Below are positions 2,813-6,398 of a stretch of 7,753 bases of DNA, piece by piece. Below the pieces are notes generated by a model, which worked only from the letters and a program-made list of their open reading frames with translations, was not told where the DNA came from and did not search any database. How positions within the stretch are numbered: position 1 is the stretch's first letter; each line of letters starts with the position of its first letter. Location: assembly GCA_002403905.1 (NCBI GenBank), contig DHIR01000113.1, forward strand, positions 17,036-24,788, read 5' to 3'. Position numbers and translations under genes: made by a program. Source of the DNA: Mucilaginibacter sp. UBA4741. GTDB lineage: Bacteria > Bacteroidota > Bacteroidia > Sphingobacteriales > Sphingobacteriaceae.

Positions 2813-3133
2813 TTATGTGAACTTGAAAAAAAACTGTTTGTCTTTAAATGGCACTTTTATTATTGTACTTGTAAAAGGAAAATCATCTTTAGAGAGTGTT
2901 TCAAGGTCCTCCTTTAGCACTCCTGATCCGGTAAATATTACCCTGACCTTTCCTTCATATTCTATTTGTAATGTCAGGCATGTACCGTCCCTGCTAAATT
3001 TGCTGTCGCCGGTGCGATAGTCCAGTATCATTACTGATTTATCTAATATTTCTTCAATTGTTATTTTATCACCGGTCAGGTTTTTTGATTTCACCCCCAG
3101 CGAACTGATTAACGTTATTTTGTTTTTTGCCAT
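2813..3133 (-). CDS. Hypothetical small protein, start corrected to an internal ATG
   Basis: A 106-aa protein beginning MAKNKITLISS, with a strand-rich middle: 'KSVMILDYR', 'TCLTLQIEYEGKVRVIFTGS' at about residues 51-70, and 'DFPFTSTIIK' at 84-93. I have a loose memory of similar small proteins beside recombination genes in Bacteroidota phages, annotated only as hypothetical, so no function is given. The reading frame stays open further upstream to a TTG at 3268, which would add 45 residues. That extension consists of the non-coding template-like repeat copy A and its leader, so I reject it; the ATG at 3133 has no visible Shine-Dalgarno but is the only ATG placed between the repeat and the conserved body. 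The gene follows copy A and precedes the acidic-tail gene by 9 bases. Confidence 0.75.
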   Translation of the reverse strand: MAKNKITLISSLGVKSKNLTGDKITIEEILDKSVMILDYRTGDSKFSRDGTCLTLQIEYEGKVRVIFTGSGVLKEDLETLSKDDFPFTSTIIKVPFKDKQFFFKFT

Positions 3134-3175
3134 GTTGGCAGGGTGTGTGCTGCTTATTATTTTTATTATCCCTTG

Positions 3176-3241
3176 GTGCGCACTGACATTCGTATTCGTA
3201 TTCCAGTTATCGTAGTTCGTATACGAGAACCTGAAGCCTGA
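3176..3241 (-). repeat. Copy A: candidate DGR template repeat (TR), non-coding
   Basis: A 66-base segment lying 37 nt after the stop of gene B. It corresponds codon by codon to the variable regions of genes B, D and E, but with 20 adenines concentrated in AAC, AAT and ACG triplets. Over the first 60 bases, gene B differs from copy A at 16 positions and 15 are adenines here, for example AAC to TCC, GAT to GCT, AAT to CGT, AAT to TTT, AAT to CAT and ACG to GCG (twice). The only exception is one third-position C to T. Its 3' edge, AGT GCG CAC, matches D and E (GGT GCG CGC), again through A to G only. It does not sit in a plausible gene: the conserved C-terminal tail seen in the proteins is missing after it. 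This is what a DGR template looks like by family knowledge. Whether it is transcribed and reverse transcribed is inference. Confidence 0.82.
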
Positions 3242-3277
3242 ACAACTGCCTACCCTCACAGCGCACAACCCTTTGTT
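3242..3277 (-). other. 5' leader of copy A, shared with the leader of copy C
   Basis: The bases between the stop of gene B and copy A resemble those between the stop of gene D and copy C: both carry an AAAGG-like start, then GTGCGCTGTG (A) or GTGTGCTGTG (C), then GGCAGT shortly before the repeat. None of the coding copies E, D and B has this leader. It therefore marks the non-coding copies as a class of their own and may be part of a structured template RNA. A nine-position pairing with one mismatch is possible between 3259-3267 and 3144-3152 downstream of copy A, which would bracket the repeat. That stem was found by eye and was not folded. Confidence 0.45.
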
Positions 3278-3667
3278 TTATTTATTGATCAGGAAATATT
3301 CCTTGTACAGATCAGCAAATTGCTCGCCGGCGTATAGTGCCATATCACTCGATTTAAAGCAAAGCCGGGAACCGACATGCGCAAACGCACGCCAATCAGC
3401 GTAGGACGTAAACGAGAACCCGAAGCCCGAAGGGTGTTCCTTGTCTTTTTTAATCACGAAATATGGGAAGTATTTATACTCACTGCTTTTAGTCCAGTCA
3501 GGCTGCCATCCATTATTTAATGCCTCGGCTATTTTAATTAGCTTGTAGTGGGCGATGACCGGGGCCTGATCTTTCACCGGCAGTAACGAAACTTCCGGTA
3601 ATGCATTTGGGTCGACGCCTAACTTTTTGCAGGCATCTTCATAAGTTTTTATGTCTTTAAAATCCAT
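3278..3667 (-). CDS. Gene B: variable small protein, DGR-like target
   Basis: A 129-aa protein beginning MDFKDIKTYEDACKKLG. Layout: an N-terminal helical part with the 'Y.DACKKLG' motif (residues 9-17) and 'KLIKIAEALNNGWQPDW' (42-58); an aromatic 'EYKYFPYFVI' stretch (63-72); the variable segment at residues 80-101; and a conserved tail 'LCFKSSDMALYAGEQFADLY' (102-121) ending INK. It is cytoplasmic by appearance, with no signal peptide or membrane segment. Upstream the frame is open to a TTG at 3712, but that part overlaps copy C, and the family motif begins right after the ATG at 3667, so I start there. Of the three paralogs it is the one whose tail is nearest to that of copy C, while its variable segment fits copy A best. 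I recall similar Bacteroidota hypothetical proteins with the GSRLCFK tail. The molecular function is unknown; a variable binding surface is inferred. Confidence 0.85.
   Translation of the reverse strand: MDFKDIKTYEDACKKLGVDPNALPEVSLLPVKDQAPVIAHYKLIKIAEALNNGWQPDWTKSSEYKYFPYFVIKKDKEHPSGFGFSFTSYADWRAFAHVGSRLCFKSSDMALYAGEQFADLYKEYFLINK
3365..3430 (-). repeat. Variable region (VR) of gene B
   Basis: This is codons 80-101 of gene B. Relative to copy A, changed codons are TCA to TCG, AGG to GGG, TAT to TTT, AAC to TCC, GAT to GCT, AAC to GAT, AAT to CGT, ACG to GCG, AAT to TTT, ACG to GCG, AAT to CAT and AGT to GGT. Invariant codons between them keep every base: GGC TTC, TTC TCG, TAC, TGG and GTC. 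Substitutions hit template adenines and almost nothing else, so amino acids change while neighbouring synonymous sites do not. Past the GTC GGT the sequence follows copy C (TCC CGG CTT TGC) instead of copy A. Confidence 0.85.
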
Positions 3668-3677
3668 GATGTATAAA

Positions 3678-3833
3678 TTATAAGGTGAAAAATTGATTGT
3701 ATTCCTTTTCAAACTGTTGCCCTGCGTACATAGCTAATTCACTCGATTTGTAGCAAAGCCGGGAACCGACATTCGTATTCGTATTCCAATTATCGTAGTT
3801 CGTGTTCGAGAAGCTGAAGCCTGAACCTCGAAA
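3678..3833 (-). pseudogene. C-terminal fragment of a fourth family member enclosing copy C, no start
   Basis: In frame after a TAG at 3834-3836, 51 sense codons run to a TAA at 3678-3680. They translate to the template-like variable segment followed by the family tail (LCYKSSELAMYAGQQF, then a short end FFTL). The N-terminal half of the protein is missing and the only in-frame Met lies deep in the tail, so it cannot make a full protein. The tail differs from that of gene B by ordinary changes (for example TAC/TTT, GAA/GAT, GCA/GCC) that are not limited to adenines, unlike the repeat core. Two readings are possible: a decayed gene whose core was retained or captured as a template, or a template that always carried this tail as 3' homology for homing. 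The TAA lies 10 bases before the ATG of gene B. Confidence 0.65.
3759..3824 (-). repeat. Copy C: second candidate DGR template repeat (TR), non-coding
   Basis: A 66-base copy lying 48 nt after the stop of gene D. It would read S-G-F-S-F-S-N-T-N-Y-D-N-W-N-T-N-T-N-V-G, with Asn triplets AAC/AAT wherever the proteins vary. Over the first 60 bases gene D differs at 13 positions (11 template adenines) and gene E at 16 (14 template adenines). The four exceptions are T/C changes at third positions of AAY codons 9 and 12. Codon 4 is AGC here and GGC in D and E, whereas copy A has AGG and gene B has GGG; this supports pairing C with D and E, and A with B. AAY and TAY triplets cannot mutate to stop codons by adenine replacement, a known design feature of DGR templates. 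Confidence 0.78.
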
Positions 3834-3871
3834 CTACTGCCAGCTTTACACAGCACACCACCTTTCGTATT
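3825..3871 (-). other. 5' leader of copy C, shared with the leader of copy A
   Basis: This stretch between the stop of gene D and copy C has no gene. It aligns with the leader of copy A with small gaps: a GTGTGCTGTG element and a GGCAGT element stand in the same order, the latter 8 to 14 bases before the repeat. It also contains the TAG that blocks the repeat frame. It may be the 5' part of a template RNA; this is inference from the shared sequence. Confidence 0.4.
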
Positions 3872-4270
3872 TTACTCCGGTATAATGAAATACAAGTCCT
3901 GGTAGAGATAATCAAACTTATCCGCTATATGTATAGCCTCCTTTGACGTCCCTACGCTCAGGCGCGCACCGACATCCGTATACGTACCCCAGTCATCGTA
4001 ACTCGCGGCCGAGAAGCCGAAGCCCGATTGTTTAGTAGTATCGGTTTTTATCCAATGCCACGCGCTATATTTTCTCTGGTTATTATTGCTCCAGTCAGCA
4101 ACAAACTTATTGGCTTTGTTATGCGCTTCATGTACAATGAACAACTTAGCCACTGCTAACATTGCTTTTCGGTGTTGTGGTTGCACCCAACTCAAATCGG
4201 GTTCACCAATCGGCTGAATACCTAAAAAAGCACAAGCCTCTTCTTCTGATTGAAATAATATTACTTCCAT
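3872..4270 (-). CDS. Gene D: variable small protein, DGR-like target
   Basis: A 132-aa paralog of gene B beginning MEVILFQSEEEACAFLG. The 'EEACAFLGIQP' stretch (residues 10-20) corresponds to 'EDACKKLGVDP' in B. Next come a helical segment 'MLAVAKLFIVHEAHNKANKF' (37-56), an aromatic 'ADWSNNNQRKYSAWHWI' stretch (59-74), the variable segment (82-103), and a tail 'EAIHIADKFDYLYQDLYF' (111-128). The tail keeps the F..LY spacing but not the LCFK motif of B. There is no signal peptide or membrane segment. The ATG is 3 bases after the stop of gene E, which suggests translational coupling. Copy C follows its stop. The family is recognisable only by comparison with its neighbours, and the function is unknown; the variable segment suggests a changeable recognition surface. 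Confidence 0.85.
   Translation of the reverse strand: MEVILFQSEEEACAFLGIQPIGEPDLSWVQPQHRKAMLAVAKLFIVHEAHNKANKFVADWSNNNQRKYSAWHWIKTDTTKQSGFGFSAASYDDWGTYTDVGARLSVGTSKEAIHIADKFDYLYQDLYFIIPE
3962..4027 (-). repeat. Variable region (VR) of gene D
   Basis: Codons 82-103 of gene D. Relative to copy C: TCA to TCG, AGC to GGC, AAC to GCC, ACG to GCG, AAC to AGT, AAT to GAC, AAT to GGT, AAT to TAT and AAT to GAT. The two non-adenine differences are both T/C at third positions. The 3' edge GGT GCG CGC CTG is identical to gene E and agrees with copy A (AGT GCG CAC) through A to G changes. Downstream of this edge D and E no longer match closely, which sets the 3' boundary of the homogenised segment. Confidence 0.83.
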
Positions 4271-4273
4271 TGG

Positions 4274-4741
4274 TTATAGTGTTAAATAATCGTTATAGTA
4301 TTTTTTAAACTCATTGGCACCCTCTTCTGCCAATTCTCTGGTCCTATATTCCAGGCGCGCACCGACAACCGTATCCGTATCCCAGCTAGCGCAAAACGCG
4401 CGCGAGAAGCCGAAGCCCGATGTGTCAGGGCTCCAATATGGCCAGTAATGTTGTTCAATACCATCATAAACCTGTTTCCATATTTTGCCATCTATCATGT
4501 TTTTGGCTCGGATACAGATTATTAAACGGTCATAAGCATCTGAAGAAACCTTGTCGAGGTCAGTTCTGTCCTCCAATGGAGGGACGGGCGTTTTACCCAA
4601 TAATTTACAGGCTTTTAAATAAGGGCCTTTCTCATTGAATAGGGTAGGGAACCATCCTTCCAATAATTTTTGTTCATCCTGACCGGCTTCCTCATGTAAT
4701 TTAATGAGTCCGTTCTTAATAGCTTTTAATTTTTGATTCAT
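4274..4741 (-). CDS. Gene E: variable small protein, DGR-like target
   Basis: A 155-aa paralog of B and D with a longer, Lys-rich N-terminus (MNQKLKAIKNGLIKLHEEAG). The shared core begins at 'YLKACKLLGKTP' (residues 41-52), followed by 'DAYDRLIICIRAKNMIDGK' (68-86), an aromatic 'YDGIEQHYWPYW' (92-103), the variable segment (108-129), and a tail 'YRTRELAEEGANEFKKYY' (132-149) that is close to the RELAEYAGKQF form I associate with this family. It is soluble by appearance. The gene starts 14 bases after the stop of the MBL-fold gene and ends 3 bases before gene D, so it is the first target in the array. No non-coding template follows it directly, so its template must be A, C or one elsewhere. 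The function is unknown. Confidence 0.85.
   Translation of the reverse strand: MNQKLKAIKNGLIKLHEEAGQDEQKLLEGWFPTLFNEKGPYLKACKLLGKTPVPPLEDRTDLDKVSSDAYDRLIICIRAKNMIDGKIWKQVYDGIEQHYWPYWSPDTSGFGFSRAFCASWDTDTVVGARLEYRTRELAEEGANEFKKYYNDYLTL
4355..4420 (-). repeat. Variable region (VR) of gene E
   Basis: Codons 108-129 of gene E. Relative to copy C: TCA to TCG, AGC to GGC, AAC to CGC, ACG to GCG, AAC to TTT, TAC to TGC, GAT to GCT, AAT to AGC, AAT to GAT (twice) and AAT to GTT. Fourteen of sixteen changed bases are template adenines. It is the only copy in which the TAC codon has changed, giving Cys. A template with AAT at codon 9 and AAC at codon 12 would explain every change in both D and E, so the exact template may be a third copy not in this window. 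Confidence 0.83.
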
Positions 4742-4755
4742 GTTGTGTGATTATA

Positions 4756-5493
4756 TTAAAATGGTGTTTTATTAAAATTGATACATAGCCCTTTATCGGC
4801 GATGTGGACGTTCTTTGCAGTTTGATCCAATACTTCCTGCCGGAATTGATTTGCATTGCTATTGTTATCTGATAAGTGTATCAGTAAGATGTTGTTCACT
4901 GCTGTGAGGTCATTTGCATTTAAAAACTCCTTGCATGTAGCCAGGCTCATGTGAGATTCCAATACCCGATCGCGCAGGAACTGCTGAGATACACCTTCCG
5001 ATACTTTCCTATCCAATATCTCCTGACTGTAATTAGCTTCAATGATTATATTGTTTAAGCCAGGGAATGTATATGGGCAATAGTAGCTGTCAGTTATAAA
5101 AACAATACGGCCAGTTTCTTCATGCTCAATCAAGTAGCCAACCGGCTCCTTACAATCATGCTTTACATCGAATGACTTTATCCTGAAGCCACCGAGCGTA
5201 AAAGTTTTACCAACCTCTATCTTGTTTAACCGGTGGTGCAGCAGATTGAATGCATCAATTGTACCTGGTGAAGCATATACTTTAATACCCGCGGTAACAA
5301 TTTCTCTAACAGCTTTGCAATGATCCTGGTGCTCATGGGTTATTATAACCCCCACGACTTTAGACAGGTCAAAGTTCAGGGCCTGTTTTATGAACGCGGC
5401 TTTTACACCGCATTCTATTATCAGGCATTCCGTATCGTTATATAGCAGATAACAATTGCCGGCTGATGAAGATGATATTACTTTAATTTTCAT
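4756..5493 (-). CDS. MBL-fold metallo-hydrolase
   Basis: A 245-aa metallo-beta-lactamase-fold protein. The metal-binding motif HEHQDH is at residues 53-58. Other likely ligands or fold positions are the His in 'DVKHD' (112), the Asp in 'VFITDSYY' (135), the His in 'ESHMS' (181) and the His in 'LIHLSDNNSN' (206), the last resembling the H-x-S end motif of the YycJ/WalJ-like and RNase Z-like branches. It begins MKIKVISSSSAGNCYLL, typical of that branch, whose members are proposed nucleases or phosphodiesterases. In phages such genes often stand beside recT, and here the ATG overlaps the recT stop by one base (TGATG), so translation is probably coupled. A nucleic-acid-directed role with RecT is inference; the substrate cannot be read from the sequence. 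Confidence 0.9.
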   Translation of the reverse strand: MKIKVISSSSAGNCYLLYNDTECLIIECGVKAAFIKQALNFDLSKVVGVIITHEHQDHCKAVREIVTAGIKVYASPGTIDAFNLLHHRLNKIEVGKTFTLGGFRIKSFDVKHDCKEPVGYLIEHEETGRIVFITDSYYCPYTFPGLNNIIIEANYSQEILDRKVSEGVSQQFLRDRVLESHMSLATCKEFLNANDLTAVNNILLIHLSDNNSNANQFRQEVLDQTAKNVHIADKGLCINFNKTPF

Positions 5494-6398
5494 CAGAATT
5501 TTAACTCGTTTGATGTAGTGTTTTCAGCAGCAGCTGCTGCCGGTTCTGTTTTGACCTCTGTTTTTGCCGGTTCTACCTTTTTAGGATCTTCCATTATTTC
5601 GGCGTCATCAAATGTGATGTTCTTTTTATGCGCCTTCTCCTTAATCTCATGCTTAACTCCGGCAGAAACCTGATCATCTTCACGCATTAGCGCGGAGTCG
5701 TCAGAGGTATTCGCGGCGACTTTAAGGGACCGGGTTATTACCGTTTTAGCGCACATTTGATCCGGAAAGTTTTTATGGGCCGGGGAGATGCCTTTTGAAC
5801 CACCCATTTCCCATGACTTTTTTATTTGAGCCAGGGTCATTATTTCGGTATCGGTAGAACCATCATTGTAAGTTACCACAGAGTAGGCGCCAACTATTTT
5901 ATCGTTATCGATGTTTTTAAACTCCTGCTGGTGCTCAATAACCCTTTTCCGGCCATTTTCCAATATTTCATATCTAAAGATGTCATCCTTATAAATGATT
6001 ACCGCTTTCGGTTCTTTAACCCCTGCATCCCGTTTGGCAATAGAAACAGCGCCGAAGTATGACTCATCGAGTGATAATTCATTACCGTACACGACAAAGT
6101 ATGCTTGTTTCTTAACTACGCTTAACCCTTTAATTACCATTTCCAGGAAAGCATTGGCAATACTTTCTTTAGTACAAACCTCAAGGGCGGGCCTCTTCTC
6201 CCTATCGACTACATCCTGTAGCATTAACCAACCGGCCCGGACCGCATTTTCCGGAATGTAATTAGGAGGTAATACGATATCTCCTGTTGCAAGGAAATCA
6301 TTAATCCTTGATAGAATATTATCTACCGTCTTTTCCTGAAACCTTTGAACACTTGTTGTTTGCTGTGCTGCAGGTGTATTTGTGTTTTCTGTACTCAT
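5493..6398 (-). CDS. recT: RecT-family single-strand annealing recombinase
   Basis: A 301-aa protein matching the RecT family: 'ALEVCTKESIANAFLEMVIKG' near residues 71-91, 'QAYFVVYGNELSLDESYFG' (98-116), 'AKRDAGVKEPKAVIIYKDD' (121-139), 'IVGAYSVV' (168-175) and 'FPDQMCAKTVITRSLK' (211-226). RecT proteins anneal complementary single strands during phage-type homologous recombination, usually with an exonuclease. The C-terminal ~60 residues are low-complexity Glu/Lys/Ala/Pro and end NELKF. It lies 48 bases after the zinc-hook ATPase gene, with an AT-rich gap and no Shine-Dalgarno, and overlaps the MBL-fold gene by one base. No RecE or other obvious exonuclease is in the window; it may lie beyond 7753. 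If the adjacent variable genes are diversified by cDNA, an annealing protein is a plausible helper, but that is speculation. Confidence 0.9.
   Translation of the reverse strand: MSTENTNTPAAQQTTSVQRFQEKTVDNILSRINDFLATGDIVLPPNYIPENAVRAGWLMLQDVVDREKRPALEVCTKESIANAFLEMVIKGLSVVKKQAYFVVYGNELSLDESYFGAVSIAKRDAGVKEPKAVIIYKDDIFRYEILENGRKRVIEHQQEFKNIDNDKIVGAYSVVTYNDGSTDTEIMTLAQIKKSWEMGGSKGISPAHKNFPDQMCAKTVITRSLKVAANTSDDSALMREDDQVSAGVKHEIKEKAHKKNITFDDAEIMEDPKKVEPAKTEVKTEPAAAAAENTTSNELKF

What the first reader, a model, noticed from the sequence alone, without database searches (positions are those of the whole stretch)
3176..4420. Adenine-specific hypervariation across five copies of a ~60 bp segment: a DGR-type system
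Aligned by codon, the coding copies (genes B, D, E) differ from the non-coding copies at 45 positions over three 60-base comparisons (B against A 16, D against C 13, E against C 16). Forty of these are adenines in the non-coding copy. The five exceptions are all T/C at the third base of AAY codons. Adenine makes up only about a third of the template, and all other bases, including free synonymous sites in TTC, TCG, ACG and GTC, are fixed. Outside the segment the same paralogs diverge in the ordinary way. Random drift or positive selection on protein alone would not spare the synonymous sites; mutagenic retrohoming from a template would.
Basis: partly seen in the sequence, partly recalled or inferred. 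Interest (0 to 1): 0.96.

Follow-up and report, generated by a model that had tools for sequence, protein, structure and literature searches.

The report
Orphaned phage gene-diversifier without its enzyme
In a closed 47-kb genome of a bacterial virus, three small genes carry the adenine-only marks of a targeted mutation machine (a diversity-generating retroelement), but no gene for the machine's reverse transcriptase is found there and its two template copies are likely recombined hybrids, so the genes are probably frozen; several related viruses likewise lack or have a broken copy of the enzyme while keeping the genes it would have diversified.

Summary
The segments are two template repeats (A, C) and three variable repeats (B, D, E) of a phage diversity-generating retroelement (DGR). 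The complete system is absent. The phage contig closes to a circle; no DGR reverse transcriptase was found on it or in the 80%-complete host MAG. Syntenic relatives read MBL-VP-VP-TR-RT-g196. Here only the RT is missing, between TR-A and g196.

New: (1) TR-A and TR-C look like reciprocal hybrids of two parental templates, which removes all but one non-adenine exception column; a covarying 11-pair helix flanking the TR supports this. The variable repeats match the inferred parents, so they were probably last written before the swap. (2) RT loss recurs in at least six other relatives; one keeps g196 by in-frame fusion. (3) g196, predicted OB-like, lies directly behind the RT in 53 of 55 loci: a candidate new DGR accessory. 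(4) The variable proteins showed no C-type lectin match and sit in a recombination module.

The parts
3176..3241 (-). Template repeat A (TR-A), non-coding, template-type 3' end (GTCAG...CAC)
3759..3824 (-). Template repeat C (TR-C), non-coding, template-type body but variable-repeat-type 3' end (GTCGG...CGG)
3678..3752 (-). Remnant of the C-terminal end of a variable-protein gene, joined to the 3' side of TR-C
   Evidence: (phrog_11581 positions 146-194, E 1.5e-9)
3278..3667 (-). Gene B, variable protein (phrog_11581; from its ATG)
3365..3430 (-). Variable repeat in gene B
3872..4270 (-). Gene D, variable protein (phrog_11581)
3962..4027 (-). Variable repeat in gene D
4274..4741 (-). Gene E, variable protein (phrog_11581, weak, E 0.00029)
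4355..4420 (-). Variable repeat in gene E
3259..3271 (-). 5' strand of the TR-flanking helix, copy A
3142..3152 (-). 3' strand of the TR-flanking helix, downstream of TR-A (none seen downstream of TR-C)
3851..3862 (-). 5' strand of the TR-flanking helix, copy C; pairs 11 of 11 with the 3' strand at 3142-3152
3128..3140 (-). Hairpin TGCC..GGCA of the TR-RT spacer; its ATG (3131-3133) now starts g196. In relatives the RT gene begins a little after this point; here it is absent
2813..3133 (-). g196 (phrog_19665): predicted OB-like protein, in relatives encoded against or overlapping the 3' end of the RT
4756..5493 (-). Metallo-beta-lactamase-fold hydrolase (MBL), syntenic anchor upstream of the variable-protein genes

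Best explanation
The five segments are two template repeats and three variable repeats of a phage diversity-generating retroelement whose reverse transcriptase gene was not found in this closed phage genome, so the three proteins were, by inference, diversified at adenines in the past and are now likely frozen. Likely history: a resident cassette MBL-E-D-TR-RT-g196 diversified E and D. A piece with the end of a variable-protein gene, gene B and the 5' half of its own template then recombined into the resident template, leaving two hybrid templates, C and A (inferred). In another event of unknown order the RT was deleted from the TR-RT spacer to about codon 6 of g196, and g196 was kept in frame on a start codon from the spacer hairpin. 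In intact relatives the template RNA, closed by an 11-pair helix, is predicted to be copied by the RT with errors at A; g196 would act on the single-stranded cDNA; and the cDNA would replace the variable repeat, changing a predicted beta-hairpin on a small protein.
For: A-specific differences: 40 of 45; 40 of 42 under the hybrid model, the 2 left being one column. RT absent: no RVT_1 in the MAG at E<=0.001; at E<=10 one retron-like fragment on another contig; nine relatives' RTs give no match to the phage contig better than E 0.24. Genome closed: its ends join in one open frame, and the joined 690-aa protein is listed whole and 100% identical in 2 contigs, the longest 46,670 bp, whereas the held 46,963-bp contig has it split at its ends (source of those contigs not told). 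Synteny: of the best 80 of 109 MBL-anchored loci, 10 carry the variable-protein genes within about 1.6 kb after MBL; 7 have a full RT frame with YADD, 2 a truncated RT, 1 is cut by the contig end. g196 follows a full-length RT match in 18 of 18 loci that have one, of 94 examined. Hybrids: five informative columns split reciprocally with one shared breakpoint interval; C-upstream/A-downstream helix strands pair 11 of 11 against 9 of 11 for A/A. The helix is supported with registers fixed by sequence motif alone: 17 distinct pairs of strands, mean 10.65 of 11 paired, 0 of 20000 permutations of partners as good. RT loss in relatives with different junctions: L140, L047, L075, L020, L191, L021/L022.
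Against: Both templates keep their AAY motifs and the variable repeats show almost no non-A drift, so loss must be recent or an RT acts in trans. The host MAG is only 80.29% complete, so a chromosomal RT could be missed. The hybrid model rests on five columns plus the helix; T66 in C could be a chance mutation. Column 57 needs either a changed template or two separate breakpoints. Copy C's unmutated 3' body would not be expected if its gene end came from an ordinary mutated variable repeat. No tree of the RTs was made, so 'DGR-type' rests on motif and linkage.
Confidence: 0.82

Rival explanations
1. The locus is still active: a reverse transcriptase from a co-resident phage, another replicon or an unassembled part of the host works in trans on TR-A, helped by the retained g196.
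For: Variable-protein genes, TR-A and g196 are open or in place while only the RT is missing; L140 shows the same anatomy with g196 kept by an in-frame fusion. In Bacteroides phage Versailles an RT match is at 54436 and the variable-protein homologue at 10307, though I did not test whether that RT's template serves it. The MAG is 80% complete.
Against: The variable repeats match the inferred parental templates, not TR-A or TR-C as they stand, so probably no full-length homing since the swap. TR-A's helix is imperfect and TR-C lacks its 3' part. No DGR RT found in the MAG.
Confidence: 0.15
2. Chimeric cDNA: the RT switched between templates A and C while copying, so the variable repeats are mosaics and the templates were never recombined.
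For: The column pattern is the same whether templates or copies are mosaic.
Against: Needs the same switch interval in B (one direction) and in D and E (other direction), and does not explain why the flanking helix strands outside the repeats look swapped too or why C ends in a gene tail.
Confidence: 0.05
3. Ordinary paralogues under diversifying selection; the adenine bias is a by-product of AAY-rich codons.
For: The three genes are paralogues and diverge outside the segment.
Against: D and E differ at 0 of 42 template-non-A columns while the flanks differ at 21 of 30 and 19 of 32; the same pattern next to an RT recurs in relatives.
Confidence: 0.01
4. Assembly artefact: RT lost and templates joined wrongly across repeats.
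For: The source is a MAG in 299 contigs; no reads were available.
Against: A and C share only 14 identical bases in the breakpoint interval (columns 52-65), short for an assembly join; g196 stays in frame across the deletion junction; the circle is supported by other contigs, though these need not be independent samples.
Confidence: 0.04

Closest known systems
Bordetella phage BPP-1 DGR (VR-TR-RT with Avd; PMC12875486, abstract and two passages seen)
   Same: Template and variable repeats, adenine-only change, template followed by a structured spacer and the RT in relatives
   Different: Here no RT, two likely hybrid templates, three small target genes with an internal variable repeat, and g196 behind the RT in relatives; no Avd seen (search inconclusive)
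Target genes without RT or TR in some Treponema denticola isolates (PMC4891356, passages seen)
   Same: Variable repeats persist after the core DGR is lost
   Different: There both RT and TR are gone; here templates and g196 stay, only the RT is missing, and RT loss recurs across a phage family
Second, RT-distal variable repeats near counter-defence genes in gut prophages (PMC12629997, passages seen); LoVEphage and BI-TP1 homologues
   Same: LoVEphage and BI-TP1 carry homologues of gene B in neighbourhoods with DNA methyltransferase genes (and, in LoVEphage, a Lar-like restriction alleviation gene)
   Different: In the window's relatives the genes normally sit next to TR and RT, in the recombination module; whether the paper's second VRs are these very genes was not checked
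[quoted passage not shown]
   Same: Several templates in one DGR
   Different: No hybrid templates or RT loss in the passage seen

Membership tests
Diversity-generating retroelement (DGR) | Near-identical TR/VR pairs whose differences fall at template adenines | tested here: met
   40 of 45; 40 of 42 under the hybrid model
Diversity-generating retroelement (DGR) | TR non-coding, VR inside an open gene | tested here: met
   (ORF listing also runs a TTG-started frame of g196 through TR-A; relatives and the ATG argue against it)
Diversity-generating retroelement (DGR) | DGR-type reverse transcriptase encoded with the cassette | tested here: not met
   not found on the closed phage contig or in the MAG; an RT with IGNY.SQ and YADD is present in most relatives, called DGR-type by motif (recalled) and linkage, without a tree
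Diversity-generating retroelement (DGR) | Distinct 3' ends of VR and TR (IMH and IMH*) | tested here: inconclusive
   TR-A has the TR-type end, TR-C the VR-type end; the reported relatives' pairs that reach this stretch show the A/G split. Function of the ends not tested
Diversity-generating retroelement (DGR) | Known accessory protein (Avd, HRDC or MSL; names from PMC10053308, passages) | tested here: inconclusive
   PF05635 gave no match in 16 relatives, but no control rang either; HRDC and MSL not searched for
Diversity-generating retroelement (DGR) | Mutagenic retrohoming in vivo | not testable with these tools
   needs reads or an assay
[quoted passage not shown]
OB-fold single-stranded DNA-binding proteins (g196) | OB fold | tested here: inconclusive

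The most novel reading that the evidence does not exclude
A distinct phage DGR class in which g196, an OB-fold protein encoded against the RT's end, takes the place of Avd, and the variable proteins work inside the cell in counter-defence or recombination rather than in the tail. In this class phages repeatedly switch diversification off by deleting the mutator while target genes, and in some phages template and g196, are kept under selection: a 'diversify, then lock' life history, with some RT-less phages perhaps borrowing an RT from co-resident relatives. (Against the intracellular part: the homologue in phage Versailles is annotated 'tail protein'.)
Probability: 0.25. Interest if true: 0.85.

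Novelty: new variant of a known kind. Interest (0 to 1): 0.62.

Why it matters
DGRs are often recognised by their RT (in PMC12629997 a genome counted as DGR-positive only with an RT gene and repeats, passage seen), so RT-less descendants would escape such surveys. This family shows how a targeted mutator can end: the target genes outlive it, and in two phages (the window's and L140) the neighbouring g196 gene stays in frame. It also offers two testable parts for intact DGRs: a covarying helix that would close the template RNA, and a predicted OB-like protein tightly linked to the RT, possibly for the handling of mutagenised cDNA.

Tried and rejected
Host-encoded RT: the only RVT_1 trace in the MAG at E<=10 is a 157-aa open-ended fragment on contig C269 with YADD and VTGL motifs, read from memory as retron-like, E 0.0128. 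A search with 70 residues of a relative's RT found nothing in the MAG, but had no positive control.

RT remnant on the phage: tblastn with nine relatives' RTs gave nothing better than E 0.24.

Helix: single-sequence duplex energies were mostly not beyond shuffled controls, and the best score of each sequence was reached by 5-164 of 200 shuffles. One search chose registers by pairing, and the covariation count (97.7% of cells paired, 8 of 11 pairs with change on both sides, 0 of 500 shuffles; slid registers 31-45%) used those registers for 13 of its 16 rows and hand-set ones (from the alignment) for L018, L043 and L075, which favours pairing; L047 and L103 were left out as duplicates of L043 and L057. 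I therefore repeated it with registers set by sequence motif only on 20 relatives: 17 distinct pairs, mean 10.65 paired, against 8.93 with other relatives' partners, 0 of 20000 permutations. There L013 and L015 fall to 9 because the motif rule picked a second match. A_up/A_dn of the window reaches 10 of 11 in a shifted register (123 of 500 shuffles do as well); 9 of 11 is the homologous register.

The TR/VR scan reports only pairs with at least 80% of differences at template A and picks the frame that favours A; it is a finder, not a test. It found no pair in L020, L021, L022 or L073.

Fold searches: no PDB relative for the variable protein; the eight BFVD matches with E<=0.001 are uncharacterised phage proteins. 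No C-type lectin appears in those lists, which does not exclude one. Pfam gave nothing above cut-off for B, D, E or g196; NCBIfam nothing for B, g196 and one relative of each.

Relatives of E and of the 2225-2803 gene in viral contigs: none by that method. The joined tail protein matched nothing in the phage collection or in 19 relatives' records; the closure rests. Among genome contigs one encodes a relative of B, weakly.

Paper searches listed, by titles and starts of abstracts, no work on hybrid DGR templates or on an OB-fold DGR accessory; this is a limited library.
Full report
Observation. The strongest single number is that D and E differ at 0 of 42 columns where neither template has A, while, compared without gaps, the 30 bases upstream differ at 21 and the 32 downstream at 19.

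What the genome is. The window is G000:C19:17036-24788 of an 80%-complete MAG in 299 contigs. C19 is a 46,963-base phage contig; most of its genes lie on one strand, and those in the window include recombination genes (SNF2-type helicase, RecT, a metallo-beta-lactamase-fold hydrolase, an SbcC-like protein). Its two ends join in one open frame, and the joined 690-aa protein is listed whole and identical in 2 contigs, the longest of 46,670 bases (source not told), with the other 119 listed homologues covering 98-100% of it. I take the phage genome as closed.

What the family normally looks like. Relatives of gene B were found in 13 IMG/VR contigs; 10 of the 13 records have an RVT_1 match, with IGNY.SQ and YADD motifs in the nine RT frames extracted (that such motifs mark DGR RTs is recalled; phrog_1423 'Reverse transcriptase' matches the RT of L068 at 2.6e-120; no RT tree was made). 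In those ten the scan, which reports only pairs with at least 80% of differences at template A, lists pairs with 92-100%. Anchored instead on the window's upstream hydrolase, 10 of the best 80 loci (of 109) carry the variable-protein genes after it, from directly behind to about 1.5 kb away, in the order MBL-VP-VP-TR-RT-g196. This is the window's order, with the RT missing between TR-A and g196.

RT loss. No RT was found on C19 and no DGR RT in the MAG. The window's g196 begins MAKNKITLIS, unlike the 17 other aligned members, on an ATG in the TR-RT spacer hairpin: by comparison the deletion runs from the spacer to about codon 6 of g196 and leaves g196 in frame. Other losses: L140, template kept, first RT codons fused in frame to g196; L047, RT cut before YADD and joined in frame to the next gene; L075, RT remnant with a stop after 50 codons; L020, deletion from the end of the second variable gene, which is shortened, to the last codons of g196; L191 and L021/L022, template body and RT replaced by an HNH-type endonuclease gene with a stub of the template region left (for L191 the HNH reading is mine from the sequence). 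L195 has neither TR nor RT nearby, and L015 reads YADY where its near-twin L013 reads YADD. Anchored on variable proteins (B and two relatives that come from RT-bearing loci, which biases towards RT), 38 contigs were examined: 32 have an RT match (one cut by the contig end, L015 with YADY), 5 do not (L021 and L022 look like one phage), 1 has no room to tell. Apart from the shortened L020 gene, variable-protein frames could be read open in L140, L047, L191, L021 and L022 and for the second gene of L075.

Hybrid templates. Five columns distinguish A from C at non-A bases. B follows A at the first two and C at the last three; D and E do the reverse. With a breakpoint in columns 52-66 B has 0 non-A differences of 13, D 1 of 13, E 1 of 16, the last two at one shared column. 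Outside the repeat, the upstream helix strand of C pairs 11 of 11 with the downstream strand of A, that of A only 9 of 11. The helix itself holds across relatives when registers are set by sequence motif alone: 17 distinct strand pairs from 20 relatives, mean 10.65 of 11 paired against 8.93 with swapped partners, 0 of 20000 permutations; an earlier count with pairing-chosen registers gave 97.7% of cells and 8 of 11 pairs with double changes. Copy C ends in a variable-repeat-type 3' end and the tail of a variable-protein gene. The simplest reading is insertion of a gene-B piece into the resident template by homologous recombination; it is inferred. Because the variable repeats fit the parents, they were probably last rewritten before that event.

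Variable protein. The model of B (pLDDT 85) has helices and a hairpin that carries the variable repeat at lower confidence; no good match among solved structures. PMC8144416 (section 8 read) says annotated VR regions are systematically C-Lec and targets typically carry the VR at the C-terminus; here the repeat is internal and no C-Lec match was seen, which is inconclusive. Homologues in named phages lie in recombination or methyltransferase neighbourhoods, in line with the remark in PMC12629997 on second variable repeats near counter-defence genes (passages seen); against an intracellular role, the Versailles homologue is annotated 'tail protein'.

Verdict. A DGR by origin, not a complete DGR now: the defining RT was tested for and not found. 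The finding is a new variant of a known kind; its value lies in the recurrent loss of the mutator, the likely hybrid templates, and the RT-linked OB-like gene.

Noticed in passing
L038 1222-1695 (contig C269 of the host MAG): Open-ended fragment of a probable retron-type RT (YADD, VTGL) at a contig edge, unrelated to the phage.
   Followed up: partly
L015 1644-2606: RT of a near-twin of L013 reads YADY at the catalytic motif; could be a real inactivating change or an assembly error.
   Followed up: no
L022 10405-10869 and L191 about 5830-6200: HNH-type endonuclease genes sit where template body and RT stand in relatives, leaving stubs: the DGR may be a repeated landing site for homing-type genes.
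   Followed up: partly
L211/L213 (LoVEphage OY725593) and L212/L214 (BI-TP1 PQ571265): RVT_1 matches below the curated cut-off fall in two separate open frames in both related Bacteroides phages, as if the RT were split or frameshifted.
   Followed up: no
L039 (G209): One RT and template with a nearby variable gene and two more about 7 kb away.
   Followed up: partly
NC_055892.1 (crAss-like cr109_1), L208: Variable-protein homologue in a 99-kb phage record without any RVT_1 match at E<=1.
   Followed up: no
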